Shown piece by piece: positions 22,310 through 60,186 of a stretch of 64,000 nucleotides of DNA. The position numbers and the translations under genes are program-made. The stretch's first letter is position 1; each line of letters begins with the position of its first letter. Source of the stretch: a virus. The notes under the pieces are model-generated. The model searched no databases. It had not been told where the DNA came from and worked only from the letters and a program-made list of their open reading frames with translations. The stretch covers positions 50,038-114,037 of IMG/VR virus record IMGVR_UViG_3300046467_002136; one strand, 5' to 3'.

Positions 22310-25300
22310 ATGACCGAGTTCTCTCCAAAAAAAAGAACCTACCTCTCAGCAAGAATCCGTCGTAGACGACGAGATTTAGAAGCTGCTGGGCTGGACTTTC
22401 TTGAACGTAGAAACGTTCTTGCTGCACAGCCAACCCTTAACGCTCAAATTGTAGTTAAGGCGCTTGATGGCAGTATCGGAGATTCTCCTGAAAAGGAAAA
22501 AGATAAGTCCAAGAAGCGCACAGCTGGTTCAGGGGTTAAAGAGATAGAGCCCGAGGTTCGTTACGACCCTAAAGGTGTTCGTGATCCTGGACAAGTTTTC
22601 AAACTGCATGTCACTGCTCGTGACCTCAAAACAGGTGAAGACAATTTCGGGTGGATTGATCCGCCCGAGGCAGTGCCGAAAGAAAAACAGCGCTCCAGTA
22701 TGGCTGACGCTATGCAGTGGCGGGCAACTCGGCCTCAGATTCGGATACGGACTTACGATCAGGACCCAAGAACGGGTCAACCAATCGTTGAGACTGAGGA
22801 AGAAATTCAGGTCAAAGGTCTCGGTAGAACCCTCAAAGACACCCTTCCGGGCCAAAGTCTTGGGGGGCGTGCGGCCAGCGGCCTTGGTCTCATTGTTGAC
22901 GCTTTAGGAAAATTCCGTTGCCCACCCGGCACTCCGGCGGCCAATCAGTTCACCGACGAGTTCGGGACAAACTGTTTCTCGCCTGTAGAGATATTACGCG
23001 ACACAGTCCGGGGTCTTGTCAATAGTCTCAGATCCAGCAGAGGCCGAAGCTGGTCATTACCCGGTCGAGGCGATAGCGAAGCGGAACAGCTGAGGTCCAA
23101 TATCGCAGAGCGGCGCGCAGCCGCCGGTAAAGCCGGACAGCTTATTGGTAATACTGCGTCGATTGAAGCAGCCTTGATTGAACGCAACACCGTTATTCAA
23201 TCTTTAATGGATCAGTACGGCATTTCAGCTGGAGACGAACTAAACGAGGATATGTGGTCATTGTTGGAAGCAATGACCGATGTAGATACCGGTGATTTCC
23301 CCGACCTGGAATGGAAAGGATTGTTCACCAGCATGTTCGGAGATGAACTCTGGGATGAAAATCTTACGATGCGTCAAAATTTGGAAAAGATGCGTGCGGC
23401 AGTTCGCGAAGACGTATTCAGTTTCATGGGTGCACAAACCAAAACGGGTGCACAAGCAATCCGGGATTCGTATAACCATAGAGACCCCAAAGCGATGGCA
23501 ATGGTTGACGGTCTTGTTGGTCGACACGAATCAGCGATGCGAGGATTCTTAGGTTCGACTCTTCACGAGTTCGGAGACGATCCGAGAGCCATGAGCGGTC
23601 TCAAAAAGATTTCTTTCCGAGCCTACAACCCAGATATTGACGACTTCCAAAGCTATTGGGGTACCGAAGGGGAATGTATTCCCCTCTGGGAAGGTACCGG
23701 CACCGGGATGGCCACCAAACTCCAATTCAACGCTACTGCCATTGCCCTGCGACCGTTTCAAGAGGGTGGACTGACTCATGAGGGTCCGGACGGTCGACCA
23801 AAACTCGTACAGGTTGATGCTGGAGGCGCCTTTTCGGCATCAGTAACAGACGCCGAGAAATGGGCGGCAATCGCAGACTTTCTTGCACATACTGAAAAAA
23901 TGGAATACTGGCATAAACAATATGCAAATGACCTTACTGCCTCTGCTCACGGTGGAAGCCTCGAAGCCTTTTCCATGCATGTCGGATATCACGAACTTGC
24001 ACACGTTAAACAGTATCAACAGATCGCACAACGAGTATTAGAAACCTATGAGCGTGATGGTCAATTCTCGATTTACAAAAGAGACGGCACTGGACTCGAA
24101 TTATTAACTGCGAATCCTTCTGAATGGACAAACGAACAGTTCGCTATGGCCGTTGCCTCCACATTCCAAGATGCGCTTCCACCCGGCACCACTACCGACT
24201 TTCCCCCGATGGACATGGTCCAATTTGAGGGAAGCATGCTGCATCTTCTCGCAGGACAATATTACCAAGACCTGGTTCAAGGTTTCCTGCAAGCAACCTC
24301 TGGTGGTTATGCAGAAGATATTACTCCGGGTCAATATGTGAGTCCTTTGGACGCCAGAGGACTACCTGTTCACAATTCGGCGAAAGCCCACCTCAACCTG
24401 TTGTTTCTAGAGGGAACAGCTGAACTAGCGGCTCTTAAACGAACCGGAGGCATCGCAGGCGACGAACTCAATGAAGTTCTTGATTGGATGGACGCAGACA
24501 TAGCAGACGTTGTCTACGGGATTCCAGAGGTTGACGTTCCGTTTAAACCCGGTTCCATTGTTTCCGACACTGACATGGGTGAAGCGCCTTGGGACACTCC
24601 TCTCGAACCGGGCGAAGTTATGACGCCATCAGGCATCATTATTCCGACTAGTGCTGTGAAAAAGATAGAAGCAGCAGCGGCGAGGAAGAGGCAAGAACGC
24701 CAACTAACTACGGAGAAGCGAAAGCTCGAAACTGCTAGACGATTGCGGCATCGAACAGAAATACACAGTTGGGGCAGCGGCGGGGACGGTGAAATCAAAA
24801 CTGCGTCTGATGGAACAAAATATGTTTGGATCGGAGCATTAAGTGGTGAGGGCGAATGGCAGGTGCTATTTGATGACCTGTTTGAACCAGCATTTCTGGA
24901 GGAGCTAGAAGGTGTCACCCCACCCGAAGTGGACTATGACCTTCCACCCGGCATGCGCTCTGGCGGTATGCGCTCTAGGCGAGAATTGGGCCAATTCGAC
25001 AACGGACCCAGAGTCGGAAAGTTTTCCGGAGAAACACACGAAGAACCAGACGGCTCAGTCTGGGAGTTTCGCCCTACTCTTCGGGATCGTCCAGAAAAAG
25101 GTGGTTTCTGGCGTGATATGACAGACCCTGCAAACCGACGAGAAATAGCCGAACGCGCCACACGCAGACGCCAATTGGAAGCTCAAGAGGGTCGAAGCAT
25201 GGGACGACTTGCTCGCCCGGGGGCTGGAAGCGAATGGGAAAACATTGTCCGGAGGGGCGATGGCGGGATGCGTTCCACAAGGGCCACTGTGGGACAAAGT

Positions 25301-28300
25301 CTCACTCCCGAGGAGATCAACGATCACGCAATACTTGACGACCTAGAACTAGAACTGGAGAGATTAGACGCAGCGTCCCCCACCCTTCTGGGGCGGTTGC
25401 GTCAAAAGTTTGGTGGCCACAAAGGGCTCGAACAGCGCAAAGAGAGACACCGAGAGAGTATTGCAGCCGTTAAGGAAGCATTAGCTGAGGGCAGATTCGT
25501 CGAAAGTCTGGATGATTACATAAACCTTACCGACGAAGACAAGATGAAGTTTTTCGGACCTGAATACCATGGCAAGCCTCTCGTCGTCACCGCCGATCAG
25601 ACAGAACTTGCAATGAGAATCATCTTGGATAGTTATCGCCTCAACCCTGACGAATCTGATTCCGACAAACTCATGCACGTCAAAATTGTTCCCACTGATT
25701 CAATTACCGGAGAAGAGATCCAATCACTGCTGCATAAGGAATTCGCTGAGGCATTGGAAAACGGAATGCCTATTGCAGAGGCGCTAGAACAGGGTAATGA
25801 CATTGAAGCACAGCGCTTAATCGCAGAGTTCAACGCTAGCGACACCCCATTCATGCTCGGTAAAGAACATTATGACTTATGTAAGGTTTCCGTAGCGGGC
25901 TCAAACATGTTCTGTTATGACCACGAAGGCATATTGCGAAACAGCATGCCTCAGTTCAGTGGCCCTGTCTGGGATTTCGACACAGAAGAACACCAAAAGG
26001 TGTATGAAGACGCTATGACCAAGCTCGCCAACGCAGCCGGTCATGTCGACCCCTCAACGGATGAGTACGAAGACTGGTTCAAGTCCCCGGAAGGATGGGC
26101 CGCTAGGCAGGAAGCCCACAAGGAAGTGTTAGATGCAGGGGGCCAGGCGACGAAAGCCGCAACACTCTGGCATCAACAATTTGAAGAGAAGAAGAGACGA
26201 CTCATGTCGGAAGGGATGAGCGAAGCAGACGCCCTTCAAGGCGCAGCGGACGCAACCCAGTTCGGAGCAGATTCCACTCGTCAATTGATCGATCACTTAA
26301 GGGCAAACGGTGTTCGGGTCGAGGGTGGATTTGGCAAAGAAGATTTACGGCCCGATTCCGCCCGGATTGACGCCCCTGGCGATGATCTGGAAACCGGCAC
26401 AGAGAACCCGATCAAGAAAGCTTTGCTATTTCTTAAGGCCAGTCAGAACGAACTAATCGGACCCAAGGTGATGAAAGAAGCCCGGAAGGCGACCATAAAA
26501 CAACCTGACGGGACATACATCAAAAACCCGGACCACTGGCTCTTTAAAGGATTCGATGGTTCTTCAGATCCGATTTTGGTTACCGACGACGGGTTCATTC
26601 TTGATGGTCATCACCGCTGGGCAATGCTCGTAGCGGTTGCCAGTCTGACGGGAGATGAAGACGAAATTTTGGGCCACAAGAACGTTGTCGTCGTTCATAT
26701 GCCCATCAACGAAGCCTTGTCTTACGGGGTGGCCTTTGCCGACGATATGGGTATGCAGCGGGCACCCGCTGGACCGGATGAAGCTGCCCCACATCCTTCG
26801 ACGCTTCCTGACGTATCAGGAACGTGGGCGAAACGACAGGCTCTGGCTGACGAGAAGAAAAGTTTATTGCCTGAAAGTCCGGTCGAAGAACGTGGGATGC
26901 GATCCTCCCGTCGCATGCAAGGCGATTTCGACGAAATCACCCGGGTCGGAAAATTCCATGGAGAAACTCACACAGAACCAGATGGTTCAGTCTGGGAATA
27001 CCGCCCAACTCTTCGAGATAGGCCCGAACAAGGCGGGAATTGGATTGATCTTTCTGATCCCGGCATGCGACGACATATGGCTGATCGCGCAAGAAAAAGG
27101 CGTCTGGCAGAAGGCGAAGCCGGTGCTTTCGGTGGCTATGACCGTCCTAGAGGGCGTGCAGGTATGCGCTCCGAGCGTCTACCTCAAAGGGACGAAGAAA
27201 CCCGCCCAGGGTGGGACCATGCTCCGCATCGAGGCCGAGGGGTTCCTGATGGTTCGCCGAACCGCTTCCGTGAGGTACGCGGTGGTCAATATGTCAATAG
27301 CGAATGGGACGACATCAGTCGCGGCGGGATGCGTTCCCAGCGCAGAGAAATAGAACTGCGGAACATGGAACGTGAAATCCAAGCCGCAGTAGGGCGTGAA
27401 CGGGCTCTCGAAACAGATCTTCTTCAGCTCCGAGAAGATGAAGATGGTTTCGTTATTACTCGTGAAGAATTTGACAATTCGGTTGCCGAAATATCTATTG
27501 AGCGACAGGCATTGAAGGAGCGTAAGCAGCGACTGCAGCAACAGCACTCGATCCTTAAGCGCCATCGCGACAGGGGTTCTAGAACGGGCATGCGGTCGAT
27601 TCGTGTGAGAAAGCAAAGCGACAACCCCGGCGCAGCAGAAATGATGACCAATCGCAACGCCAGCTTGGCTGAAGCGATTCCGGATTCAGCGTTCTCTGCT
27701 CCCAGTGGTTGGGGAAGCAACTATGGAACTGATCGCACTTCTAGAGCCTTGCCGCCAATCCAAAGTCGCAGTAGCGCACTCTCGGATCACTATGAAAAAC
27801 TCGACAGTTCACTGGAAGATTTACTAGGAAGTGAAGACGGGCAATACCTGCAAGGGCCTAACCTGTCATTTTTGGAGTTCGACCCGGAAGTTGTCGAATT
27901 CCTATCCAACCACGAAAAAGACGAAGTTAGTGAGACTATTGCCAAAGCAGCCGTTCAATTCCATCGTGGATTCGACCGGAGACCAAGAGTCCTACTCGAT
28001 TCAGATGAATTTGAAAATCTGTTAGAAACAGGCAGCCACTCCAGACCAGATGTTCCATACGGCGAAAACAGTGTTGCGGATTTACGCATGGACTATGACC
28101 TTCGTAACGGTTTTGACACAAATACCCCGGCGTCTCAGCGTCCGGTAAGTGGACACCTGTATCACGCCATGGATGATGACCAAATATCCGAACGCCTCGA
28201 TGCCATTGATGGGCCGTTGATGGAACGACTCCCTGACTTCTGGGATTCAGAAGGAACGGCCCCTTGGGGAGATCCAGCAGCAATGGGTGGAGACATCGAC

Positions 28301-29041
28301 ATCGTTTTACGCCCAGAGGTATCCGACAGAACTCATTACGGATCAGGCGACGCTATGGGCCGTGGGGCCATTCCGACGCCCATGAACTCAAATGACGCAA
28401 ACGAAATTCTTGCTGCTCAGACCCCACGCTGGAACAGCGGGCAAGAAGATGGTCCCTTCAAAAACACTGTGAAAATGCACGACCTGTTAAAAGCGGGGGC
28501 AACTGGAAACTATAGAGATCTCTCCCCCGACGGTGAGCACCATGAAGCACAAATCGCTGGGGGTATCGATATGGACGACATTGAGTTTGTCCGCTATCCG
28601 GTCAACAAGCTCAATTGGCGCAATCTCAAACTCAGCGATGCAGATACAGGGAAAAACGACGAATCTGCAGCAGCCCGACTGCGCACTGCAGGATTTAGCG
28701 ATGCCGAAATTGGTTACTTCTATGACGCTATAAGCGATGGGCGAGTTGCAGGTTTACGAAATGTCAACTGGCTTCGCCAACATCTTGCAGCTCAAAAAGC
28801 ACAAGAACGATTCGATCGTCTTGGAGTTGATGTCAAATTCACAAACCCAGACGGGATAGACCTTATGAATGTTGATTCGTTCATGAGCAATCTTCCAGGA
28901 GCTATTTCAAGCACAACGCCTGCAGACGTTTTACGCAAACGGATACATCTTGAAATCGCAGAGCGCGCAACTGAGCTACTTCAAGATATTCGGAAAGAAA
29001 TGAAGCCAAATCGCAATGCCGCCGCAGGAGTTTTGGTCTGA
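22310..29041 (+). CDS. Giant multidomain virion-associated protein: Cys module, HELAH zincin, DGHHRW ParB-like domain, ART-like C-terminus
   Basis: 2243 residues. Near 203-225, CPPGTPAANQFTDEFGTNCF is a paired-Cys module shared with the 33480 gene. Near 555-710, YHELAHVKQY (H561, E562, H565) with LEGTAELAAL about 140 residues later is a gluzincin-like metalloprotease pattern. Residues 1200-1480 hold YDLCKVSVAGSNMFC and then VTDDGFILDGHHRWAM, a ParB-like domain pairing seen in actinophage proteins. A module of about 85 residues (GETHEEPDGSVWEFRPTLRD) occurs at about 890-985 and again at 1537-1620. GMRS occurs seven times from about 881 to 1760. The C-terminal 370 residues start LLDSDEFENLLETG and resemble the end of the 35417 protein. 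No signal peptide. Its function as an injected effector is inference. Confidence 0.8.
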   Translation: MTEFSPKKRTYLSARIRRRRRDLEAAGLDFLERRNVLAAQPTLNAQIVVKALDGSIGDSPEKEKDKSKKRTAGSGVKEIEPEVRYDPKGVRDPGQVFKLHVTARDLKTGEDNFGWIDPPEAVPKEKQRSSMADAMQWRATRPQIRIRTYDQDPRTGQPIVETEEEIQVKGLGRTLKDTLPGQSLGGRAASGLGLIVDALGKFRCPPGTPAANQFTDEFGTNCFSPVEILRDTVRGLVNSLRSSRGRSWSLPGRGDSEAEQLRSNIAERRAAAGKAGQLIGNTASIEAALIERNTVIQSLMDQYGISAGDELNEDMWSLLEAMTDVDTGDFPDLEWKGLFTSMFGDELWDENLTMRQNLEKMRAAVREDVFSFMGAQTKTGAQAIRDSYNHRDPKAMAMVDGLVGRHESAMRGFLGSTLHEFGDDPRAMSGLKKISFRAYNPDIDDFQSYWGTEGECIPLWEGTGTGMATKLQFNATAIALRPFQEGGLTHEGPDGRPKLVQVDAGGAFSASVTDAEKWAAIADFLAHTEKMEYWHKQYANDLTASAHGGSLEAFSMHVGYHELAHVKQYQQIAQRVLETYERDGQFSIYKRDGTGLELLTANPSEWTNEQFAMAVASTFQDALPPGTTTDFPPMDMVQFEGSMLHLLAGQYYQDLVQGFLQATSGGYAEDITPGQYVSPLDARGLPVHNSAKAHLNLLFLEGTAELAALKRTGGIAGDELNEVLDWMDADIADVVYGIPEVDVPFKPGSIVSDTDMGEAPWDTPLEPGEVMTPSGIIIPTSAVKKIEAAAARKRQERQLTTEKRKLETARRLRHRTEIHSWGSGGDGEIKTASDGTKYVWIGALSGEGEWQVLFDDLFEPAFLEELEGVTPPEVDYDLPPGMRSGGMRSRRELGQFDNGPRVGKFSGETHEEPDGSVWEFRPTLRDRPEKGGFWRDMTDPANRREIAERATRRRQLEAQEGRSMGRLARPGAGSEWENIVRRGDGGMRSTRATVGQSLTPEEINDHAILDDLELELERLDAASPTLLGRLRQKFGGHKGLEQRKERHRESIAAVKEALAEGRFVESLDDYINLTDEDKMKFFGPEYHGKPLVVTADQTELAMRIILDSYRLNPDESDSDKLMHVKIVPTDSITGEEIQSLLHKEFAEALENGMPIAEALEQGNDIEAQRLIAEFNASDTPFMLGKEHYDLCKVSVAGSNMFCYDHEGILRNSMPQFSGPVWDFDTEEHQKVYEDAMTKLANAAGHVDPSTDEYEDWFKSPEGWAARQEAHKEVLDAGGQATKAATLWHQQFEEKKRRLMSEGMSEADALQGAADATQFGADSTRQLIDHLRANGVRVEGGFGKEDLRPDSARIDAPGDDLETGTENPIKKALLFLKASQNELIGPKVMKEARKATIKQPDGTYIKNPDHWLFKGFDGSSDPILVTDDGFILDGHHRWAMLVAVASLTGDEDEILGHKNVVVVHMPINEALSYGVAFADDMGMQRAPAGPDEAAPHPSTLPDVSGTWAKRQALADEKKSLLPESPVEERGMRSSRRMQGDFDEITRVGKFHGETHTEPDGSVWEYRPTLRDRPEQGGNWIDLSDPGMRRHMADRARKRRLAEGEAGAFGGYDRPRGRAGMRSERLPQRDEETRPGWDHAPHRGRGVPDGSPNRFREVRGGQYVNSEWDDISRGGMRSQRREIELRNMEREIQAAVGRERALETDLLQLREDEDGFVITREEFDNSVAEISIERQALKERKQRLQQQHSILKRHRDRGSRTGMRSIRVRKQSDNPGAAEMMTNRNASLAEAIPDSAFSAPSGWGSNYGTDRTSRALPPIQSRSSALSDHYEKLDSSLEDLLGSEDGQYLQGPNLSFLEFDPEVVEFLSNHEKDEVSETIAKAAVQFHRGFDRRPRVLLDSDEFENLLETGSHSRPDVPYGENSVADLRMDYDLRNGFDTNTPASQRPVSGHLYHAMDDDQISERLDAIDGPLMERLPDFWDSEGTAPWGDPAAMGGDIDIVLRPEVSDRTHYGSGDAMGRGAIPTPMNSNDANEILAAQTPRWNSGQEDGPFKNTVKMHDLLKAGATGNYRDLSPDGEHHEAQIAGGIDMDDIEFVRYPVNKLNWRNLKLSDADTGKNDESAAARLRTAGFSDAEIGYFYDAISDGRVAGLRNVNWLRQHLAAQKAQERFDRLGVDVKFTNPDGIDLMNVDSFMSNLPGAISSTTPADVLRKRIHLEIAERATELLQDIRKEMKPNRNAAAGVLV

Positions 29042-33479: not shown

Positions 33480-35417
33480 ATGGCGACTTCCTACACCTAC
33501 ACGAAGGAATTGGATTGCTGCGGCGGCTTGGAAGTGCAGGTCAAACGAACAATCTTACGAAAACTTGACGACACCATTCCTTCGGGTCTAATCCGGCATA
33601 CACGCGCATCTGACGAAATCATTGGCGAATACAAAGCCTTATCTCATAGAAATGGAAATACTCGTCAGTACGACATCAGCGTAACTACCAAAGCGGGTTT
33701 AGTCAGATCGGGCTCCCGTCTCGGGCAGGCAGCTCAGGCAGCGGGTTCGATCATCACACCTGGAAACATTTCTAGAGTTCGAAGTCCCCTACGTTCGGCT
33801 GGATGGCGGGCACTCACCCCTGGCCTCCCCGGAGGCGGACGAGGTATTCGCAAACGTGGACGGGCACACCGATGCCCAGAGGGCTACCAATACGGTGGTC
33901 GATTCACTGACAATCAACTATCCACTTGCGGCCAACAACTTTTTGATATTCCATCTGCCCTCGGTGCAACCATTGCCGCTATCCGCAGAGCCGCTGCCGG
34001 TGCACCCACGGCACCCGAAGGTGAGGTAATTCGTGGACGCCCGGGCCGAAACGTTTTACAAAGCCGTAAGCCAGACATTCCTCGCGTCGGGAACGACAAT
34101 CGCCAAGAACGTATTCGTGCTACAGGAAAAGTCATAGAAGCCATGGGTAAGCCCGACATAGACACGGCTCGGCTTGTTCGACGCGATGGCTTTCAGCTTG
34201 AACCAGTAGTTCCTCCCGCAGTATTGCGCACCATCCCCGACAACAGGGACATGGAAGGCGCCACCTACCTAATGAATCTCACATCCGTTGATGGAATGGG
34301 TGGCGAAGAGTTGGGTCTCCTCTCCAATACGGGAGTTACCAATATCTCTTACGTTCTTCCTGACGGATCTTCTCTTTCTATTGAAAAGGTTCGAGGGCTC
34401 ACAGTCGGTGAGCGTAGGAAACTGGGCCGCACTGTTAATGCTGCCATGAAAAAAGACAATTCTAAAGATCCTGCGGCCAGACTGAAATTTGTCGACGAGG
34501 AGACCGGAACGGGCATCGCATACACCGAGAACTGGGCAGGATCAGCTCGTTCCGTTGCGGATGCCCTCAAGTCCAAGCCAGGAAAAACACCCACGGTGGA
34601 AGCTGAAGCGCCCGAGGCTGAAGTGCCCGAAGGTGTTGGCGACAAAATCAGTAATGTCAGTGACGCTGTAACCCACATCAACGGTGGGGGCAGTCTCGCT
34701 GGAATTGATCCATCTATTCTCCAAGCTGCGATGCGAAAAGCGGGTAAAAAACGACCCGGAGGCATCATCGAGGTCGGCGATAACCGTTATCTTATGCAGT
34801 CTTCGAAAACCGATTTCGACCATTTGCACGTTGCTACGGCAGCGGAAATACAAAATCATCTAGGTCTGGCAGCATTCCCCCCAGCGTTTGCGGGGAAGGG
34901 TGGCAAGCGGCGCGACTACGTTCTCGCTGCTCCATCTATGGATACTGATCGAACATTCGACGATGTAGACCCAGCAGACGCGGTACGCATGCTCCTGGCT
35001 GACTTAATTCTCGGGGTCAACGATAGGCCGCCCACCGCTGTAGGAATACAAGGCGAAGCAACAGTACCGACACACATACCGTCTGCACTTGAAGATTTGG
35101 ATAAAATCAGCATACAAGAGAGAATTGAAGAAAGTATTTCTTCGATGAGACCACTTGCAGATGAAAGTATATATTCCTCGCATTATCAACAATTACGAAT
35201 AGCTCAACAGGAAGAATTCCGCAACGAACTTGAACGCCTTCTTGAAAGGGCTCGTACATTCAATTTTACTGATTATAAAGATCGCCTTTATCGTGACGGT
35301 TCTTTATCTGCAGCCGAAAAAACTCATCTAAATGTTATTCAAACAATTGTTGAAGCTCGCATCCAAACACTTGCTGCTTCCTATGACGCGATTCTTGACC
35401 GCTTGGACGGTAACTGA
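33480..35417 (+). CDS. Head-region multidomain protein with paired-Cys module and kinase-like segment
   Basis: 645 residues from the ATG at 33480; a GTG at 33468 overlapping the previous stop is an alternative. The N-terminal 100 residues are followed by a Gly/Arg-rich patch (GGGRGIRKRGRAH) and RCPEGYQYGGRFTDNQ with a second Cys near 148, matching the Cys module in the 22310 gene (RCP-G, then FTD, then C). After a Glu/Pro-rich linker, residues about 428-540 (IIEVGDNRYLMQSSKTDFDH, then AVRMLLADLILGVNDRP) resemble the beta-lobe and catalytic DR region of atypical (HipA/Fam20-like) kinases, although the metal-binding residues are not clear. The kinase reading is tentative. Confidence 0.65.
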   Translation: MATSYTYTKELDCCGGLEVQVKRTILRKLDDTIPSGLIRHTRASDEIIGEYKALSHRNGNTRQYDISVTTKAGLVRSGSRLGQAAQAAGSIITPGNISRVRSPLRSAGWRALTPGLPGGGRGIRKRGRAHRCPEGYQYGGRFTDNQLSTCGQQLFDIPSALGATIAAIRRAAAGAPTAPEGEVIRGRPGRNVLQSRKPDIPRVGNDNRQERIRATGKVIEAMGKPDIDTARLVRRDGFQLEPVVPPAVLRTIPDNRDMEGATYLMNLTSVDGMGGEELGLLSNTGVTNISYVLPDGSSLSIEKVRGLTVGERRKLGRTVNAAMKKDNSKDPAARLKFVDEETGTGIAYTENWAGSARSVADALKSKPGKTPTVEAEAPEAEVPEGVGDKISNVSDAVTHINGGGSLAGIDPSILQAAMRKAGKKRPGGIIEVGDNRYLMQSSKTDFDHLHVATAAEIQNHLGLAAFPPAFAGKGGKRRDYVLAAPSMDTDRTFDDVDPADAVRMLLADLILGVNDRPPTAVGIQGEATVPTHIPSALEDLDKISIQERIEESISSMRPLADESIYSSHYQQLRIAQQEEFRNELERLLERARTFNFTDYKDRLYRDGSLSAAEKTHLNVIQTIVEARIQTLAASYDAILDRLDGN

Positions 35418-38400
35418 TGAGACAGTTCGCTATTATCAAAGACGTTAGTTCAGACAAACTTTTTGCAATTATTGTCAAAGGTGATGATTTTACTGTCTGC
35501 CACGGGGTTCATCCTGTTGGCAAACAGTGGGCTGACAGTTACAACAAGGGTTTAACCAAATCCATTTATGACGACCTTCAGCCGGGAATTTCGGTTGGGT
35601 CGTTCGCTCCGGTAACCACAACAACGCAAGCTTTGATTGATGAGGCAATCGAAGGGAAACCCGTTCGTTTTCCTGATCACTCACAGCTTACATATGTCAA
35701 GTCAGTTAACTACAGATATGACGGAGAAATCCCCCAAGTAAAAGATGCAGGGCTATCAAATCTGACAGATAAAGATTTCTTTGTTGGGGCAGACTATAAG
35801 GGAGTAGCTTTTCGTGCCGATGCTGCAAGACTTTCACTTTTGGCCAAAGCTCGTTTAGGGCATTTTGGAACTGATTCTAAAGGTTTCAATTTTACTGAAA
35901 AGGGAACAGATCAGAAAGCTCTAAACGAAGAATTGTTTCAAACTGCTCGGGGGTCCGGCAATGTCCGTCGTGCAGCTAAAGCAGTGCTTTTAGAAAAGCA
36001 TTTAAACTTAGAGGAACATCCGGGGTATCTCGGAACAAGAGAACATTCGTCACCTATCCGTACAAAAGCCAATCGTCTTGGTCGAAGAATTGGCCGAGGA
36101 GGAGGCAGAGGTAGGGGTGGCGGAGGTATTCGCAAAATTGGACGATCGATGCAAGACCCGTTCGATCCAAAGGCTTGGGATGGAGATCATGACGGGATAG
36201 TTCAGGAGGGCACCATATGGGAACGCCCTTCAATACCGGGAGTTAACACGAATCTTCCGGGCCAACGTCGCACCCGAACAAAGCCTCGCAACTACCCAGC
36301 CGATGACGCAGACGGTGTCGAATTCAGATTGCGTAATCGTCGTGAAGAAAACCGTGCCCAAAATGAAATTCTAAGTACTCCGGTTGGAGAGGTTATTGAA
36401 GAATTCCCCGAAGCAACCGAAGCTCTCAGAAACACACTTTCAGGATTCCCTGAAGGCGATGACATCTGGGAAACTCCACTAAGAGACATCACAGATAATG
36501 GAGAATACTTCGGTGAGGATGATTTAGATCGACTTCTTGATGCTGCTGTACCACGGCGTCGAGAAGGTGCCACTGACAGCTTCTATCGCGATGAACAAGG
36601 CATGCGCTCCCAAAGAGACGCACCTCCACCTCCTCCGGTTCCCGAGCGTGAAAGTGAGCGTGATTTTGGCGACCCGCCTCCTCCCCCGCCTGTACCCGAA
36701 CGACGCGATTTACCTGAACCGCCAGAGCCTGGACCCCGAGCATCCGCTCCCGCTCCAGAGCCTCCAGAGCGGAAGCCACAATTAGTTCTACCTCACGCGG
36801 GTACGAGCCATGGGCAGATGACCCCTGAACAGCGACGAGAGCAACTCGACGCTATGGAATACGAAATCCCTGCCGCCAGAGCGAAGTCACGCCAAATGCG
36901 AGAAATCGCTCAAGAACGTAATCAAGATCTGAATTTCTTTAGGGGACGAGGCGCAGACGGGAAACGCCGAAACCGGCATCGTCCTGGCAGTGAGGCAGCA
37001 GCAGAGCGTGGTGAAAAGCCCTCAGGTATGAACGAGAACGCTTGGCATCGCAATGAAACAGAATGGCTTCAAAGACAGATCGACAGTGCCAACGAAGGCG
37101 TGTACTTTTGGGACCAAACAGATTACCAATGGTCCTTACAGCAGCAGAGTCTGCGAGAGTTTAATGCCCGTGGTGAAATGGCAGCCCCCCGGGGTATGCG
37201 TTCTGAACGATATGACATCACACAAGATGAAGCTGGCAAATGGCGTGTGATGGATACGGGCAACAGAAACATGCGGCTTCCCGAAGAATATGACAACCGC
37301 GAGGACGCTTTAAGAGAAGCGATACGAAGAGATAACCCCCGTGGTGGCATGCGATCTACGCGACCGCTTACGCCCGAGGAACGTGCTGACCACGAAGAAC
37401 GATTCGGCCCGGGAACACGAGATGGTACGCGACCGCTTACGCCCGAGGAACGTGCTGACCACGAAGAACGATTCGGCCCGGGAACACGAGATGGTACGCG
37501 ACCGCTTACGCCCGAGGAACGTGCTGACCACGAAGAACGATTCGGCATGCGTTCCTCAATTGAAGTTGGATCTGGACGCCCTAGTGGAGAACGGATCGCC
37601 AGGGCGCGGGAAGAAGTCGCCTTGTCAGCTGGACCCCAGCGGACCAGTGATGGCCGTCTGTATGACGAACGAACTCACGGAGAACTAGTAGATGCCTTCA
37701 CAGGTGCAGGATTGTCTATCTCTGAAGCAGAAGCAGAAGCAGATCGGAGAATGCAACATCGATTTGGTGACAGGTGGCTGCAACACCCCTTAAACCGTGA
37801 TCGCATATCTGGTCGAGGCGGCATGCGCTCGGAAAGCGGAGGCGAATCTCAACAAGATCGAATCGATCGCCGAGAACGAGGCGAGTTCGACGAAATGACC
37901 CGAGTCGGGCGAGCCGCCAGAGAAACTCATGAAGAGCCAGACGGTTCAGTTTATGAATTCCGTCCTACTCTTCACGACAAACCTGAACGGGGTGGCAATT
38001 GGATTGACATTACAGACCCCGGCCAAAGATCTGAAATGGCTAGGCGTGCTACGCAAAGGCGTCAACACGAAGCCCAAACGGGCACGAGCATGGGGCGGTT
38101 AGCGCGACCGGGTGCTGGCAGTGAATGGGATCGAACTACGAGAGGTGGAATGCGCTCTAGGACGCGTGATGCTTCAGTAGATCGTGCCTCTCAATTGCAA
38201 GGCATGCGCTCAGGCGGCAGACGACGCCGAGGCCAAGCTCAACCTGGACTTGATCGTCACTCAGACATTGACGGTCAGATTTGGGAAACTCTTACCGACG
38301 CTGAAAGAGCACATGTCGGAACGGCGATTGATACAGAAATGCGTAGACGCATGCACGGACTCGCATGGAACGACATGGACGGCATAGATCCTCGCAAGCC

Positions 38401-40147
38401 AAAACAAAAAAAGCGTTCAGAGATGACCCCCGAAGAAGAAATGGAAGCAACCTTCCACGTCAACCCCCTCGGAGGGATCGTAAAACAGTATTTCGATCAA
38501 GAAATCAGGCCAGGCTTTAAAAAAGACTATGACGGTGACGAACTTGCCCAAAAACTTAGGGACTATGTTTTCACCGACACCGACATCGACACCATCGAAG
38601 CCGCGATAGAAAGTCAAATCGAAGCGACTGGTGACGCAACTGACAAAGCTGCCGACCAGCTGAAAGATCAGTTAAGGGAAATTCGGATCTACCGAAACAT
38701 GGTCGAACAAAGCAATAACGGCAAAGACTCTGACGCCTTCCAATTCCTTGAGCATCTTACGCCAACACAGCGCGCCCGAATCTATAACCGTGCAAACGGT
38801 GCTGACAAGGATCGTCTGAAAACAAGTAAAGCTTCTTGGGGTCTCAGTAAGGGCAATCGCATCAATTCAACTATCGGCAGCACGTTCACTGAACGCCAGA
38901 CCGCCATTGACTCCGTTAAGCCCGGTGTGAGGCGTCGTGCAGGAGAGTTCTCCCGGTCGATGGCACAACGCATTTGGGCTCCAAACCCGAACAGTGCTTA
39001 TCGTCGTGCGCTTAGAAAGGCTCGACGCGGAGGGGCAGGAAGTTCTCTTCCCGGTTTCCGTCGTGAAGAGGATAAAAGATCAATAGTTGCCCGCCGTGTC
39101 GCTCAACTGCGACGCAAGTTGCGGGTCGTTAAGGGTCGTAAAGGTATTCAAGGCGCAATCAATGCTTCTGAAAAGAAACAAATCAAGAAAGCAGTCGATT
39201 TCGACGCAGACGGCAAGTTGGTTACAAGCGACGAAGGTATCGCACGTCTCGGCAAAGCCTCCAGAGCACTACTCGGCGACAAGTCGCTCCTGAAAGATGT
39301 CAGGATGAAGGGTCGTGGCGGTAAGGGCACGGACGGAGCTAGCGAAGATGAGGTCGAGAAGATACTCAATCAGAACCCAGAAATGGCTGTCATTTGGGAC
39401 GCTATGGGCATGAATGATTTGCCGGTTGTTGTAGACGATGACAACTTCGAAGCCCTGATTGATGCTGGCCATCCCGTTATAGGTCGAGGACACGGAAGCG
39501 CTAGCAATGCGACCGATTATCTTGATGACGAATTACGTTTCCTCCCCGGAGGAGGCGGTGAAGCATCAGGCAAGGGTGAGTATTGGTCAACCGGCCAAGG
39601 CAGTTGGGGTAGTTGGCAAACTACAGAAGGAGGCAACACAGCTGCTGTTCTTACACCCAATGTTCGTCGCATGGACGGAGACACTTTAGACGCCGAATCT
39701 ACCGCTAATAGATCCGTTAGTCAGGCATTCGAGCTTGTGCGAGCAACCTATCCCGGAGATGAATTAGAAAAAGCAGACATTGCCGAAGTCGTCTCCAAGA
39801 TGGATGCTGAAATAGCAAAAATAACAGATCTTGCCGAAGGTGCCCCTATTTGGGAAACCGAAGTTGGTCAACTCTGGACACACTTGTTGGATTCGATCCG
39901 CACCAGCGGCAACCCCGACTCTTTGAATGCCATGTTGCTGCTTAACAAAATTAATAACACCAGAGGCGGCAGAAACCTTATTGCCCCCATCTTGGGTTAT
40001 GACACAATCCAGTCGGGTAGCGTAGAGTTGGTGATGAACCGCAGTGCCGTCATCACCCTAGGCAGAACCCTTGGTTCTTCAGGATTGAGTCAATTCTTTA
40101 AGCAAGCATCAGATGTACGCAGCGAAGGCAGAAGGGCTAGAGCATGA
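35417..40147 (+). CDS. Giant GMRS-repeat protein with DGDHDG motif, tandem repeats and ART-like C-terminus
   Basis: 1576 residues. An N-terminal alpha/beta domain of about 190 residues (FAIIKDVSSDKLFAIIVKGD) leads to a Gly/Arg patch and FDPKAWDGDHDGIVQEG near 248. Then comes a Pro-rich region (APPPPPVPERESERD), a 23-residue unit TRPLTPEERADHEERFGPGT repeated almost three times, and one copy of the ETHEEPDGSV module (about 823-914). GMRS occurs seven times between about 395 and 929. The C-terminal part contains VVVDDDNFEALIDAG then GRGHGSASNATDYL (about 1356) and GKGEYWST, an order like ADP-ribosyltransferase folds (R...S...G-x-G-x-Y). Delivery with the DNA is hypothesised, not shown. Confidence 0.8.
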   Translation: MRQFAIIKDVSSDKLFAIIVKGDDFTVCHGVHPVGKQWADSYNKGLTKSIYDDLQPGISVGSFAPVTTTTQALIDEAIEGKPVRFPDHSQLTYVKSVNYRYDGEIPQVKDAGLSNLTDKDFFVGADYKGVAFRADAARLSLLAKARLGHFGTDSKGFNFTEKGTDQKALNEELFQTARGSGNVRRAAKAVLLEKHLNLEEHPGYLGTREHSSPIRTKANRLGRRIGRGGGRGRGGGGIRKIGRSMQDPFDPKAWDGDHDGIVQEGTIWERPSIPGVNTNLPGQRRTRTKPRNYPADDADGVEFRLRNRREENRAQNEILSTPVGEVIEEFPEATEALRNTLSGFPEGDDIWETPLRDITDNGEYFGEDDLDRLLDAAVPRRREGATDSFYRDEQGMRSQRDAPPPPPVPERESERDFGDPPPPPPVPERRDLPEPPEPGPRASAPAPEPPERKPQLVLPHAGTSHGQMTPEQRREQLDAMEYEIPAARAKSRQMREIAQERNQDLNFFRGRGADGKRRNRHRPGSEAAAERGEKPSGMNENAWHRNETEWLQRQIDSANEGVYFWDQTDYQWSLQQQSLREFNARGEMAAPRGMRSERYDITQDEAGKWRVMDTGNRNMRLPEEYDNREDALREAIRRDNPRGGMRSTRPLTPEERADHEERFGPGTRDGTRPLTPEERADHEERFGPGTRDGTRPLTPEERADHEERFGMRSSIEVGSGRPSGERIARAREEVALSAGPQRTSDGRLYDERTHGELVDAFTGAGLSISEAEAEADRRMQHRFGDRWLQHPLNRDRISGRGGMRSESGGESQQDRIDRRERGEFDEMTRVGRAARETHEEPDGSVYEFRPTLHDKPERGGNWIDITDPGQRSEMARRATQRRQHEAQTGTSMGRLARPGAGSEWDRTTRGGMRSRTRDASVDRASQLQGMRSGGRRRRGQAQPGLDRHSDIDGQIWETLTDAERAHVGTAIDTEMRRRMHGLAWNDMDGIDPRKPKQKKRSEMTPEEEMEATFHVNPLGGIVKQYFDQEIRPGFKKDYDGDELAQKLRDYVFTDTDIDTIEAAIESQIEATGDATDKAADQLKDQLREIRIYRNMVEQSNNGKDSDAFQFLEHLTPTQRARIYNRANGADKDRLKTSKASWGLSKGNRINSTIGSTFTERQTAIDSVKPGVRRRAGEFSRSMAQRIWAPNPNSAYRRALRKARRGGAGSSLPGFRREEDKRSIVARRVAQLRRKLRVVKGRKGIQGAINASEKKQIKKAVDFDADGKLVTSDEGIARLGKASRALLGDKSLLKDVRMKGRGGKGTDGASEDEVEKILNQNPEMAVIWDAMGMNDLPVVVDDDNFEALIDAGHPVIGRGHGSASNATDYLDDELRFLPGGGGEASGKGEYWSTGQGSWGSWQTTEGGNTAAVLTPNVRRMDGDTLDAESTANRSVSQAFELVRATYPGDELEKADIAEVVSKMDAEIAKITDLAEGAPIWETEVGQLWTHLLDSIRTSGNPDSLNAMLLLNKINNTRGGRNLIAPILGYDTIQSGSVELVMNRSAVITLGRTLGSSGLSQFFKQASDVRSEGRRARA
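37357..37546 (+). repeat. 69-bp perfect tandem repeat (about 2.75 copies) inside the 1576-aa gene
   Basis: Units start at 37357, 37426 and 37495 and look identical base for base; the third breaks off after TTCGGC. The period of 69 bp keeps frame and encodes 23 residues (PLTPEERADHEERFG plus linker). Identity at synonymous positions points to very recent duplication by slippage or recombination. Confidence 0.9.
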
Positions 40148-40458
40148 TTACTCCAGAAAATCATAAGGAATATCACATAATGCTCTCAACGCTTCTGCGG
40201 TACCCCCCGTTCTCCACTGAAGACGACGAAAACGGCGACGAATTGGATTACATCGCTGGTAAAGAACTAATGGCCTACCACGACGAGGTTATCGCGCCAG
40301 CATCCAAAGGCGGAAACCTAGATTGGGAATTAGAGGGTGAACCCTTCGAAGAGTTCAGAGAAAAATGGAAAGACGAACTTGAAGAGGCTGAACTTTACCA
40401 ATCCAGACATGGTGACGATTTCGCTGCCGCCGCAAAAGCTGCCAGCGGCGATGAATAA
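40144..40458 (+). CDS. Small acidic hypothetical protein
   Basis: 104 residues, strongly acidic (DDENGDELDYIAGKELMAYHD, EKWKDELEEAELYQ), helical, ATG overlapping the stop of the preceding giant gene. No motif recognised. An acidic small protein between two basic giant proteins could act as an assembly partner; this is position-based inference. Confidence 0.65.
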   Translation: MITPENHKEYHIMLSTLLRYPPFSTEDDENGDELDYIAGKELMAYHDEVIAPASKGGNLDWELEGEPFEEFREKWKDELEEAELYQSRHGDDFAAAAKAASGDE

Positions 40459-40460
40459 CG

Positions 40461-43205
40461 ATGCCCGAGGCGCGCACGGACTCCGAAACTGCCAAGAAAG
40501 CACAGGCTCTAAGAGAGGCTGCTGAACTCGGCTGTACTGGTGCGCACCGTCATCCCGATGGAACATGGATGGCGTGCAGCACAATGCAAGAATATGAGCG
40601 TCTCACCAATGGCGAAAAAGAAAAAAGCTCTTTAGATCTCATTGAGGAAACCCAGAAGATCCGTTCCCAAAAGGGTCGCAAGCGCAAGAAGAAAACTAAG
40701 CGCCAATGGGACAAGTTAAGGGAGCGAGGTGTCACTGGAATTGACACTCTGTCTGGTGGTGGACTCGTATCCGGTAAGGGTATGACTTTTCGACCCGTAG
40801 ACGGTGACACAGACGTTTTCGACAACATCAACCAAGCGCGTCGTAGAGCACGCCAATTGGGATGTATCGGTGTATCTAGACGTACTTCCCGTAGTGGACG
40901 TAGGGTTTGGACCCCGTGCACCAACATGACGGACTATGCGCGCGCCACTGGTAGTACGGCTCTTGGAAGGCGCTACCAGCAAAGACTGGAACGTCAACGA
41001 ATACGAAATATTGTTCGTGAAGAGCTATCTAAAATGAAACGACGTAAAAAGCGTTTATTTGAAGAAGTGTACGAAGCCAAAGGTATCGGTCGCCGTATCG
41101 GACGTGCTGCACGGTTTGACCCGAAGGCTTGGGATGGCGATCATGACATGATTGTCCAAGAGGGCACCCCATTTGAACGTCCTGCCATTCCTGGAATTAA
41201 TACCAATCTTCCGGGGAGAAAAAAAAGAGGTATGCGCTCTGTTTGGGATGGGAAACCCGGCACAGTTCAACGCCCAGAACCTAAAGCAAAACCAAAACCC
41301 GTAACCGACGAAGTCAGAATGGCGTCTCTCGGTAAGGAAATTGACAAGTTGCGGATAGGGAAACTTAACCCTCTGCTTCAAGAACTCAAAAAAGCCCAAA
41401 AAGAAGGCGACCACGCGGGAGTTCTTCGCATCAGAAACTTGATGGCGCCACTTCAACAAGAAGAATCACGTCTTCGTGAAGAACTCGGCACCGCCATGGG
41501 TAAAAGCAGATCGGATCTATCGTTAGGAGCTTCTGCAAATGGTGGCGTGCGTTCCCGCCGTCAAATCGATCATATGCTTCAGACTCCGCAGCAAAATATT
41601 GCCGATATGGAAGCTGACATAGATGAGTATTTCGCCTTTTTGGATGAACATAGTCGAATTGATTTTCAGAGACATTCCATCTATCGACCTGGCGATAAAC
41701 GTATTCGGAAAATAGGAGAACCGTCAACAGACCAATATTCGAGTGGAGAAGAGTATGGAGCTTTACCTGAGATAGACCAAGACATTATCGAAGAGCATGA
41801 CGATCTTTGGGGAAAGGTCGAGTGGTGGGCGAACTTTATTGAACAGTCAAGGATTGAACGCAACGACTTGACAACCGAACTTAGAGAAAAAGAAGACGCG
41901 TTAGATAGCGCAACGGAAAGCGCTCATAGGCCATATCACGCAGATACTAGAGATTTCTTAAAAGCCATCGACGGTGACGAAGATAGAGACACCTTTATTG
42001 AGCGCACATACGGCCCCTTCGAAACCAACCAGAGAGATCTGGAATACGGTGGCAGTAGTGAACCTGAGTGGCGTGAAGATCAATGGGGAAGGGATACCTT
42101 CAACCAGTACACCGACTACTGGGATGATTTGATTCGGATACGAGAAGAAACTTCATATATACAATATGAAATAAACTCGATTCAGGATCAGATTGATAAA
42201 TACCATGGGAACGGTACTGAATTCGCCAGAGACGATTATCGTAAAGCTCTAGAAGCCAAGCTGTCTAAAAAGACCAGCTCAGAAGTGATCAAGGGTGAGC
42301 TCGCTGAAGGGCGAATTGCTCTTGATCCTACTCAGGGTTTGCGTTCGCGTAGAGATCGTTTAAGCCCTAGTGAAAAAGAGTGGCTTAAGATGCTTCAAGA
42401 TAATCCTGGTCTTTGGGCTGAAGCCCCAGCAAGCGTGCGAGCGATTGCTTCAGACAAGATGAAACGTGAAGCACTCCAAATACGCAACGATTTTTCAGGT
42501 GGGATGCGAAGCGGACGCTTTGGTAGCGGCGGAAAAGCAATGGGCCAGCGAATACTTGCCAAGGTCAAGCCAGAACACAGAAACAAGGAAGATAGAACCC
42601 TTTACTTCATTGGCGGCACAACGGGTTCCGGTAAATCCACTTTAGTAAAAAATGGCTCCTTCGGCGTTCCGAACGATACTGAAGCTGCCCACATAGATCC
42701 GGATTTCATCAAAACGGGCTTAGAGGGCTGGGACCCCAAAAACGCCACCGCGTTTCACGGAGCATCCGTTACAGCAACTCGCGGCGTTCTAGATAGTGCT
42801 GCCAACGCCAAGATGGACGTTGTTGTACAAGGCACAGGGAAACGAGCCGAACACCTCCATACTGCCAGATCGCGCGGCTATTCGACTGTTGGGCATTTTG
42901 TTTATGTCCCCGGCAACGAGGCGAATAAAAGAATTGCTCAACGAACAGCGGCTGGTGGGCCTGACATCCCAACCGGTTTTGGTACCCAAATCGCTGGAGA
43001 ACTAAAAGGCCATGTAAGCAGACAAATAACACAAGGCTTATATGACGAGTTCTTCTTATGGGACAATACGGGAGATACACCAAGATTGATAGCATTCAGA
43101 AATAGGGATGGGCATTTCGAAATCAATAGCAGAACTGAGTTCGATGCTTTCTTTAGTGAGACCGGCGCAAAGTATGTAGAAAGGTATTGGAAAGATAACC
43201 AATGA
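40461..43205 (+). CDS. Multidomain protein ending in a zeta-toxin-type kinase
   Basis: 914 residues. Two related units at the N-terminus (AAELGCTGAHRHPDGTWMAC near 23 and RQLGCIGVSRRTSRSGRRVW near 131, each with C-x-x-M-x-x-Y) suggest internal duplication. FDPKAWDGDHDMIVQEG follows near 219. GMRS is near 257 and 680, GVRS near 362 and GLRS near 626. The last 210 residues are a P-loop kinase of the zeta-toxin family: FIGGTTGSGKSTLVKNG (Walker A, 718-727), AHIDPDFIKTGLEGW, VVVQGTGKRAEHL and a final FFLWDNTGDTPRLIAF. Zeta toxins phosphorylate UDP-N-acetylglucosamine and block wall synthesis; whether this one keeps that substrate is unknown. No epsilon antitoxin-like gene is adjacent. Confidence 0.85.
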   Translation: MPEARTDSETAKKAQALREAAELGCTGAHRHPDGTWMACSTMQEYERLTNGEKEKSSLDLIEETQKIRSQKGRKRKKKTKRQWDKLRERGVTGIDTLSGGGLVSGKGMTFRPVDGDTDVFDNINQARRRARQLGCIGVSRRTSRSGRRVWTPCTNMTDYARATGSTALGRRYQQRLERQRIRNIVREELSKMKRRKKRLFEEVYEAKGIGRRIGRAARFDPKAWDGDHDMIVQEGTPFERPAIPGINTNLPGRKKRGMRSVWDGKPGTVQRPEPKAKPKPVTDEVRMASLGKEIDKLRIGKLNPLLQELKKAQKEGDHAGVLRIRNLMAPLQQEESRLREELGTAMGKSRSDLSLGASANGGVRSRRQIDHMLQTPQQNIADMEADIDEYFAFLDEHSRIDFQRHSIYRPGDKRIRKIGEPSTDQYSSGEEYGALPEIDQDIIEEHDDLWGKVEWWANFIEQSRIERNDLTTELREKEDALDSATESAHRPYHADTRDFLKAIDGDEDRDTFIERTYGPFETNQRDLEYGGSSEPEWREDQWGRDTFNQYTDYWDDLIRIREETSYIQYEINSIQDQIDKYHGNGTEFARDDYRKALEAKLSKKTSSEVIKGELAEGRIALDPTQGLRSRRDRLSPSEKEWLKMLQDNPGLWAEAPASVRAIASDKMKREALQIRNDFSGGMRSGRFGSGGKAMGQRILAKVKPEHRNKEDRTLYFIGGTTGSGKSTLVKNGSFGVPNDTEAAHIDPDFIKTGLEGWDPKNATAFHGASVTATRGVLDSAANAKMDVVVQGTGKRAEHLHTARSRGYSTVGHFVYVPGNEANKRIAQRTAAGGPDIPTGFGTQIAGELKGHVSRQITQGLYDEFFLWDNTGDTPRLIAFRNRDGHFEINSRTEFDAFFSETGAKYVERYWKDNQ

Positions 43206-43428: not shown

Positions 43429-44763
43429 ATGAGCGAGGACACCTCCCGTCTTTCCGAATTGCAAACCGCAATGCGGACAAAGATGGATACAAACAAGGAG
43501 ATCGCCGATTCTTTCGAAATCGAAGACGGCGTAGTCCAAGTCGATGCAGAACAGAAAACTGCTTTCGACAAAAACATGAAAGACATCAAAGAGATCAAAG
43601 GTCTCATTGATGGCATTCAGGAGATGGAAAAGACTCGCGAGTGGGGTTCACAGCCCACAACCGAGTCGGTAGCCGCAGAAGCTGCTGCCGAATGGGCGAG
43701 CACCCCTGAGATCAAAGAGGCCGTTCAGCAGTATCGCACTGTTGGCGCCGCCTTCCTTGACTCTGCGGAGTTCAAAGCCCTTGCCAATGGTGCTGCTGGC
43801 GCAAACATGCCTGCTCCGTTCACTGTCCCCGGAAGCCTTGCTTCTAAGGACATTTACGGTCAGAAAGATGTTTACACCGCTCTGCCGACCGGCACTCCTG
43901 GTTCTTTCGGAACCATTCAGCGTGACCCAATCGTCATGCCTCCACAGCGTACAAAGCGTGTTCGTGACTTGTTCCCGAGCCGCACAACCAACGCTGCTGT
44001 CATCGAGTACTTCCGGATGTCCGGCTTCACCAACAACGCTGCTGCAGTGTCTGAGCGCTCAGGTTCTCCTGAGGTCTTCACGGCCAAGCCGCAGTCGACG
44101 TTGGCGTTCGTCGGTGAGCAGGCCCCCGTGCGCACCCTTGCACACTGGGAAGCTGCTCACCGCAACGTGCTGGCAGACGAGCCGCAGCTCCGGTCGATCA
44201 TCGACAACGAGCTTCTTTACGGCCTTCGCCTTCAGGAAGATGCGCAGATCATCAGCGGTGACGGTACCGGTGAAAACCTCACTGGTATCACTGTCGCCAC
44301 TGGTATCCAGACCTACAGCTGGTCTGCAGGTGCATTCACTCCAGTACCCGACACCAAAGCGGACGCCATCCGGCGTGCGGCAACTCTGTCGTTCCTTGCA
44401 TACTACGAGCCCACGGGCGTCGTAATGCATCCGAACGACTGGGAAGACGTTGAGCTCACCAAAGATTCCAACGGCCAGTACTTGGTCGCGGTTTCTGTGG
44501 CGCTTGGCGGCGAGCCTCGCGTGTGGCGACTCCCTGTCATTGAGACTCCGGCAATGGCTGAAGGCACTTGTGTCGTCGGTGCATTCGGTACCGGTGCACA
44601 GCTCTATGACCGTGAGCAGGCCAGCATTCGGATCAGTGAACAGCATTCGGACTTCTTCATTCGTAACGCCATCGTGGTGCTTGCGGAGCAGAGGCTCGCT
44701 CTCGCTGTGAAGCGCCCTGAAGCGTTCGTGAAGGTTACCTTCAACAACGCTCCGACTTCCTAA
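43429..44763 (+). CDS. Major capsid protein (HK97 fold)
   Basis: 444 residues. The first 100 are a charged helical delta-like domain (SRLSELQTAMRTKMDTNKEI, KNMKDIKEIKGLIDGIQEM) that acts as internal scaffold in HK97-type phages. The rest is HK97-fold: MPPQRTKRVRDLFPSR, FVGEQAPVRTLAHW, DNELLYGLRLQEDAQIISG, GTGENLTGI, and the C-terminal P-domain strand QHSDFFIRNAIVVLAEQRLA. The codon usage is more G/C-ending than in the giant genes, as expected for a highly expressed gene. No GMRS motif occurs here. It is flanked by its own promoter region and a strong terminator. Confidence 0.95.
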   Translation: MSEDTSRLSELQTAMRTKMDTNKEIADSFEIEDGVVQVDAEQKTAFDKNMKDIKEIKGLIDGIQEMEKTREWGSQPTTESVAAEAAAEWASTPEIKEAVQQYRTVGAAFLDSAEFKALANGAAGANMPAPFTVPGSLASKDIYGQKDVYTALPTGTPGSFGTIQRDPIVMPPQRTKRVRDLFPSRTTNAAVIEYFRMSGFTNNAAAVSERSGSPEVFTAKPQSTLAFVGEQAPVRTLAHWEAAHRNVLADEPQLRSIIDNELLYGLRLQEDAQIISGDGTGENLTGITVATGIQTYSWSAGAFTPVPDTKADAIRRAATLSFLAYYEPTGVVMHPNDWEDVELTKDSNGQYLVAVSVALGGEPRVWRLPVIETPAMAEGTCVVGAFGTGAQLYDREQASIRISEQHSDFFIRNAIVVLAEQRLALAVKRPEAFVKVTFNNAPTS

Positions 44764-59867: not shown

Positions 59868-59951
59868 GGCGGTGTGGTGGAACAGGCATACACAGGAGAC
59901 TTAAAATCTCCCGACTCTTGAGTCATGCGGGTTCGAATCCCGCCATCGCCA
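59868..59951 (+). tRNA. tRNA-Leu (anticodon TAA)
   Basis: Acceptor GGCGGTG pairs with CATCGCC. The anticodon stem GGAGA/TCTCC encloses CTTAAAA, giving anticodon TAA. A long variable arm (GACTC/GAGTC) marks a class II tRNA, and the T arm is GCGGG-TTCGAAT-CCCGC. CCA is not encoded. Confidence 0.95.
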
Positions 59952-59955
59952 CTTC

Positions 59956-60028: not shown

Positions 60029-60032
60029 CAAA

Positions 60033-60104: not shown

Positions 60105-60108
60105 CCAG

Positions 60109-60181: not shown

Positions 60182-60186
60182 CTAGA

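What the first reader, a model, noticed from the sequence alone, without database searches (positions are those of the whole stretch)
42600..43205. Zeta-toxin-type kinase at the C-terminus of a putative virion protein
Residues about 705-914 of the 40461 protein have Walker A GGTTGSGKST, AHIDPDFIK and VVVQGTG in zeta-toxin order. Zeta toxins poison cell-wall precursor synthesis by phosphorylating UDP-N-acetylglucosamine. A copy fused to a capsid-region protein and without an adjacent antitoxin suggests delivery of a kinase with the genome, possibly to arrest the wall synthesis of the host or of competitors.
Basis: partly seen in the sequence, partly recalled or inferred. Interest (0 to 1): 0.8.

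Follow-up and report, generated by a model that had tools for sequence, protein, structure and literature searches.

The report
Zeta-like kinase in phage head polyprotein
An uncultured phage of actinobacteria carries a kinase related to bacterial zeta toxins as the last building block of a modular protein made beside its capsid, preceded by a recurring four-residue motif that may be a cutting site and encoded next to a small partner gene that could restrain it; all of this is inferred from sequence and untested.

Summary
Residues ~701-914 of the 40461-43205 ORF form a zeta-fold P-loop kinase: Pfam Zeta_toxin 4e-10, and an AlphaFold model whose best PDB matches are all zeta toxins. In 49 distinct relatives the Walker lysine, the catalytic Asp (zeta D67) and the R158-position Arg are invariant. 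But zeta's essential E116 is Gln here (acidic in only 10 of 49) and R171 has no counterpart here, so UDP-GlcNAc as substrate is not supported.

The surroundings say more. Four large ORFs between portal and capsid genes contain 24 copies of G-[MLV]-R-S (about 0.6 expected; none in 37 other ORFs checked). Modules bounded by this motif move between genes with homology ending at it, and sister lineages carry GLSS, GFAS or GFSS instead. One copy lies 34 residues before the Walker motif. The first of these ORFs starts with the S78 prohead protease. I infer packaged, proteolytically released modules.

A 104-aa ORF (40144-40458) precedes the kinase gene and tracks the kinase: 33 informative loci with both, 20 with neither, 1 kinase alone, 0 partner alone. 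Only 3-4 evolutionary events underlie this: suggestive. Zeta-like kinases in phage polyproteins were proposed in 2017; motif-bounded layout and partner gene look new.

The parts
42513..43202 (+). Zeta-fold P-loop kinase module (aa 685-914 of the 40461 ORF)
   Evidence: Pfam PF06414 4.4e-11 on this segment; AF2 model and Foldseek
40461..43205 (+). 914-aa modular head-gene protein: DUF3721 (PF12518) near the N-terminus with a second similar stretch at about aa 130-160, DPKAWDGDxD module (aa 221-255), GxRS-bounded linker modules, C-terminal kinase
42501..42512 (+). GMRS motif (aa 681-684) just before the kinase: candidate processing site
41229..41240 (+). GMRS motif (aa 257-260)
41544..41555 (+). 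GVRS motif (aa 362-365)
42336..42347 (+). GLRS motif (aa 626-629)
40144..40458 (+). 104-aa acidic helical protein (conserved PPF..., EEAxLYQxR); co-occurs with the kinase; candidate partner, antitoxin or chaperone
15206..20437 (+). 1743-aa ORF: S78 prohead protease at the N-terminus (aa ~8-176), then a DPKAWDGD module and 6 GxRS sites
   Evidence: PF04586 1.3e-10; 39-42% identical over this part to head maturation proteases of phages Chidiebere and Cantare
22310..29041 (+). 2243-aa ORF with 7 GMRS sites; HELAH (HExxH-type, aa 561-565) and DGHHRW (aa 1432-1437) motifs
35417..40147 (+). 1576-aa ORF with 7 GMRS sites and the DPKAWDGD module
43429..44763 (+). Major capsid protein, HK97 type; no G[MLV]RS motif
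   Evidence: PF05065 4.9e-46
13113..15107 (+). Portal protein
   Evidence: PF04860 1.5e-47

Best explanation
The feature is a zeta-fold small-molecule kinase carried as a cargo module of a phage head polyprotein. Shown by sequence and model: the fold, conserved Walker lysine, catalytic Asp and the R158-position Arg, purifying selection, fixed place just before the capsid gene, modules bounded by a G-[MLF]-x-S motif that shuffle between head genes, and a small ORF that co-occurs with the kinase. Inferred: the polyproteins enter the procapsid through their N-terminal parts, the S78 prohead protease (or another virion protease) cuts at or near the motif, the freed kinase is ejected with the DNA and phosphorylates a nucleotide-type metabolite early in infection. 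The substrate is probably not exactly that of the wall-blocking zeta toxins. The small upstream protein probably keeps the kinase inactive, or guides it, while virions are assembled in the producing cell.
For: Kinase: (the only sub-0.01 PDB sequence match is zeta 1gvn, E=0.0014). Residues: K 47/47, D 47/47, R144 49/49 in distinct relatives. Selection: dN/dS 0.09-0.15. Place. Motif: 24 G[MLV]RS sites in 6477 aa against about 0.6 in shuffles and none in 11,551 aa of 37 other window ORFs; G[MLF][RAS]S 202 against 24 for the reversed motif in 95 non-redundant related head ORFs, 0 in capsid and portal proteins; flanks poor in hydrophobic residues, 0 of 2000 random draws as low. Module shuffling with homology ending at GxR^S; GFAS/GFSS at the orthologous boundary in a sister lineage. 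Protease: S78 domain 71-96% identical across these phages and homologous to annotated head maturation proteases of cultured phages. Partner ORF: 33 both / 20 neither / 1 kinase only / 0 partner only. Precedents: polyvalent proteins (PMC5512222); a giant-phage prohead protease cutting many head proteins, with Ser preferred at P1' (PMC10052503).
Against: No proteomics, cleavage or activity data. The major capsid protein, the usual substrate of a prohead protease, lacks the motif, so the motif may be a docking signal or may serve another protease. A zincin-type HELAH motif in ORF 22310 is a rival protease. E116 to Gln and absence of an R171 counterpart leave open that the domain is inactive. Kinase and partner changed together only about 3-4 times on the capsid-protein tree, and only 2 independent pairs are supported (sign test p=0.5). 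The small protein has no fold match to known antitoxins or anything else.
Confidence: 0.5

Rival explanations
1. Classic zeta mechanism: the injected kinase phosphorylates UDP-GlcNAc (or UDP-MurNAc) and blocks wall synthesis of the host or of competitors.
For: Closest solved structures are UDP-sugar-kinase zeta toxins; D67 kept; T118 (36/49) and a basic residue at the R120 position (39/49), which contact the UDP phosphates, are common.
Against: E116, essential in zeta, is acidic in only 10/49 and Gln here; E100 is Arg here; no R171 counterpart. A lytic phage gains little from an early block of host wall synthesis (inference).
Confidence: 0.2
2. Counter-defence or metabolic kinase acting on another nucleotide-type ligand (NAD, a second messenger or nucleic-acid ends).
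For: Zeta-fold kinases with other substrates exist: AvrRxo1 phosphorylates NAD (PMC5491322, PMC5087710; titles and abstracts). Six of 14 members weakly match the XopAJ/AvrRxo1 model, best 3.3e-5. After zeta toxins the next fold matches are polynucleotide kinases. A phage protein annotated 'Anti-CBASS protein Acb1' also matches the kinase model. Cultured phages with a related capsid encode RNA ligase and, in one, a VIP2-like ADP-ribosyltransferase between portal and capsid genes.
Against: No direct substrate evidence; the XopAJ similarity is weak and the window member itself does not match it.
Confidence: 0.35
3. G[MLF]xS is not a cleavage site but a short docking motif that recruits cargo to the procapsid, or a scar of module recombination.
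For: Capsid protein lacks it; codons at the sites are mostly GGN-ATG-CGN-TCN, suggesting common descent; many copies per chain would suit docking.
Against: Third codon positions vary freely, so selection acts on the protein; sites sit at module edges in linkers and lineages carry parallel variants, as expected of cleavage sites.
Confidence: 0.3
4. The kinase domain is a catalytically dead structural or scaffold module.
For: Two of five residues essential in zeta are not kept in the window.
Against: Walker Lys, catalytic Asp and Arg144 invariant over relatives down to about 25% identity; low dN/dS.
Confidence: 0.15

Closest known systems
Polyvalent proteins of phages and conjugative elements (Iyer et al. 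2017, PMC5512222)
   Same: Large multi-domain proteins near head genes, predicted to be packaged and injected; zeta-toxin-like kinases fused to MuF domains are explicitly named.
   Different: No MuF domain detected here; modules are separated by one recurring tetrapeptide; the prohead protease itself is a module of one polyprotein; a co-occurring small ORF.
Zeta/PezT toxins (PF06414; PDB 1gvn, 3q8x, 2p5t)
   Same: Fold, Walker A, IDxD catalytic Asp, R158-position Arg.
   Different: E116 and R171 not kept; not a stand-alone toxin gene; the neighbouring small protein shows no fold match to epsilon.
Internal (ejected) head proteins of T4 and giant phages processed by prohead proteases (e.g. SPN3US, PMC10052503)
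   Same: Head proteins cut by a phage protease at a recurring motif, some ejected into the host.
   Different: There mostly one N-terminal propeptide per protein; here many sites per polyprotein, with enzyme-like cargo; cleavage not shown.
Gordonia phage Chidiebere / Brevibacterium phage Cantare head region
   Same: Capsid protein 47-48% identical, portal and S78 protease homologous, toxin-like or RNA-ligase genes between portal and capsid genes.
   Different: Protease is a separate 417-452 aa gene; no G[MLV]RS polyproteins and no kinase match.

Membership tests
Zeta_toxin (PF06414) fold family | Profile match above gathering score | tested here: met
   39.8 bits against 22.3; 14 of 14 relatives match
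Zeta_toxin (PF06414) fold family | Zeta structure | tested here: met
   Foldseek top 8 PDB hits are zeta or PezT, E<=3.4e-6; TM-score moderate, 0.55-0.60
UNAG-phosphorylating zeta toxins | K46, D67 and R158 kept | tested here: met
   47/47, 47/47, 49/49; R158 placed by spacing and alignment, not by a structure superposition
UNAG-phosphorylating zeta toxins | E116 kept | tested here: not met
   Q in window; acidic in 10 of 49
UNAG-phosphorylating zeta toxins | R171 kept | tested here: inconclusive
   Pro at the likeliest equivalent position in the window; Arg there in 26 of 49 relatives; exact equivalence uncertain
UNAG-phosphorylating zeta toxins | UNAG kinase activity | not testable with these tools
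   needs an enzyme assay
Epsilon/zeta toxin-antitoxin pair | Adjacent cognate antitoxin | tested here: inconclusive
   Co-occurring small helical ORF upstream, but no fold match to epsilon or anything else
Polyvalent proteins | Several unrelated domains in one chain, encoded near portal/head genes | tested here: met
Polyvalent proteins | MuF domain carrying the zeta kinase (phage form described in 2017) | tested here: not met
   no MuF match in Pfam or PHROGs
Prohead-protease substrates | Cleavage at the motif | not testable with these tools
   needs virion N-terminomics or purified protease
Prohead-protease substrates | Same motif at the capsid-protein delta-domain boundary | tested here: not met
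   no G[MLV]RS in the capsid protein; boundary sequence varies among relatives

The most novel reading that the evidence does not exclude
A family of actinobacterial phages uses cassette polyproteins, cut by a fused S78 prohead protease at a lineage-specific G-[MLF]-x-S code, to load interchangeable effector modules into the capsid, and makes a dedicated small inhibitor so that the packaged zeta-type kinase is harmless during assembly but active after ejection: a virion-borne toxin-antitoxin-like pair in which only the kinase is delivered.
Probability: 0.25. Interest if true: 0.85.

Novelty: new variant of a known kind. Interest (0 to 1): 0.6.

Why it matters
If the motif is the protease site, the effector repertoire of a large group of uncultured actinobacterial phages could be read from sequence by splitting polyproteins at the motif, and new effector domains could be cut out and tested one by one. 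The kinase-partner link offers a testable case of how a phage protects its producer cell from its own packaged enzyme. It also shows that a Pfam 'Zeta_toxin' label need not mean UDP-GlcNAc phosphorylation.

Tried and rejected
DNA and protein searches of 50,697 phage records found no relative of the kinase, so no isolate with proteomics could be used. Major capsid protein as carrier of the motif: rejected by alignment. Small ORF as known antitoxin: no PHROGs, PADLOC or fold match. Pfam on single modules of the other polyproteins gave only chance-level hits. Kinase-partner linkage as statistically proven: rejected, too few independent events. Genome-collection scan gave one contig labelled as an Acidimicrobiia MAG (L113). 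MuF-fusion reading: no MuF domain. Loci L199, L201, L204 and L212 were left out of the contingency because the kinase ORF runs off the locus edge.

Full report
What is there. The 914-aa ORF at 40461-43205 ends in a kinase of the zeta-toxin family. The profile match is well above Pfam's cut-off, all relatives match it, and the AlphaFold model (pLDDT 85) has zeta and PezT toxins as its best solved relatives, followed by polynucleotide kinases and other P-loop kinases. By sequence the only sub-0.01 hit in the PDB is the epsilon/zeta structure 1gvn.

Is it a working kinase, and for what? In 49 distinct relatives the Walker lysine (K46 of zeta), the catalytic Asp (D67) and an Arg placed like R158 are invariant. 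The literature reports K46, D67, E116, R158 and R171 as essential in zeta (PMC6356619), and E100, T118, R120 and T128 as substrate contacts (PMC3062530). Here E116 is Gln, and only 10 of 49 relatives are acidic there. The likeliest R171 position is Pro in the window and Arg in 26 of 49. E100 is Arg. T118 and a basic residue at R120 are mostly kept. So a phosphotransferase with a phosphate-rich acceptor is likely, but UDP-GlcNAc is not supported. dN/dS of 0.09-0.15 shows constraint.

Where it sits. Upstream lie portal, an ORF beginning with the S78 prohead protease, several large ORFs, a 104-aa ORF and then the kinase gene; the capsid gene follows. A WhiB gene at 45973 (PF02467, 1.8e-13) points to an actinobacterial host (reasoning as in PMC6802176). 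The window is part of a 114-kb virus record. Capsid, portal and protease are related to those of Gordonia phage Chidiebere and Brevibacterium phage Cantare, which encode RNA ligase and, in Chidiebere, a VIP2-like ADP-ribosyltransferase between portal and capsid genes.

The motif. G[MLV]RS occurs 24 times in four ORFs (15206: 6; 22310: 7; 35417: 7; 40461: 4) and nowhere in the 37 other window ORFs checked. Shuffles give about 0.6 in total. Segments between motifs are found in other genes of other phages with homology ending at the motif: aa 523-795 of ORF 15206 recur, 86% identical, inside the kinase gene of L015, from GLR^S to GMR^S; a 51-aa module of ORF 35417 recurs in the protease genes of L022 and L023. 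Other lineages carry GLSS, GFAS, GFSS or GLAS, with the orthologous boundary of the last module of ORF 15206 showing GFAS or GFSS. In related head ORFs G[MLF][RAS]S occurs 202 times against 24 for its reverse, and 0 times in capsid and portal proteins. The motif at aa 681-684 precedes the kinase; in several sister lineages where the kinase is internal, a similar motif also follows it. A processing site is the best reading, but the capsid protein lacks the motif and no cleavage has been observed.

The partner. A 104-aa acidic protein, predicted all-helical (pLDDT 78), is encoded directly upstream. Its family (conserved PPF and EEAxLYQxR) is found upstream of the kinase gene in 20 of 21 loci examined. 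A search with the small protein alone found loci not reached by the kinase search, and these too carry the kinase. Among relatives chosen only by capsid protein and with at least 4 kb upstream, 33 have both, 20 have neither although they keep the N-terminal DUF3721-type part of the kinase gene, one (L226) has a kinase without it, none has it without kinase. Four further loci are cut at the contig or locus edge and are uninformative; some of the 33 and 20 are near-copies. Because the small gene and the kinase domain are separated by that retained part, joint loss is not a single simple deletion. On the capsid tree, however, the kinase state changes only about 4 times and the partner 3 times, and the sign test has 2 supported pairs (p=0.5); the link is suggestive. 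Many loci without the kinase have a different small ORF in the same slot.

Known or new. Zeta-like kinases in injected phage polyproteins were proposed by Iyer et al. 2017, including the suggestion that they weaken the wall. What I did not find there is the motif-bounded cassette layout with the prohead protease as a module and the co-occurring small gene. I read selected sections of that paper, not its supplements. Hence: new variant of a known kind.

Noticed in passing
window 35417-40147, 22310-29041, 15206-20437: Three further large ORFs built of GxRS-bounded modules; ORF 22310 has a HELAH (HExxH-type) motif at nt 23990-24004 and a DGHHRW motif at nt 26603-26620, both reminiscent (from memory) of polyvalent-protein peptidase and ParB-like domains.
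   Followed up: partly
window 16523-16537, 36173-36187, 41127-41141: A DPKAWDGDxDGxVQEGTxxxRPxIPGxNTN module (looks like a calcium-binding loop) near the first third of three head ORFs, also in 56 unique ORFs of related phages; possible common packaging or scaffold-binding element.
   Followed up: partly
L178, L179, L183, L185, L190, L195, L213 directly upstream of the DUF3721-type ORF: Phages without the kinase carry a different small ORF family in the slot of the 104-aa partner.
   Followed up: no
window 37357-37546: Perfect 69-bp tandem repeat, 2.8 copies, in frame inside ORF 35417 (TRPLTPEERADHEERFG units).
   Followed up: no
window 59868-60261: Cluster of five tRNA genes (Leu, Lys, Glu, Gln, Arg).
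   Followed up: no
window 50811-52736 (-): Ribonucleotide reductase ORF matching the B12-dependent class insertion domain and the barrel domain.
   Followed up: no
BFVD A0A6J5LTH6: A 1134-aa phage protein annotated as anti-CBASS Acb1 also matches the kinase model by fold, hinting that anti-defence and zeta-like domains share polyproteins.
   Followed up: no
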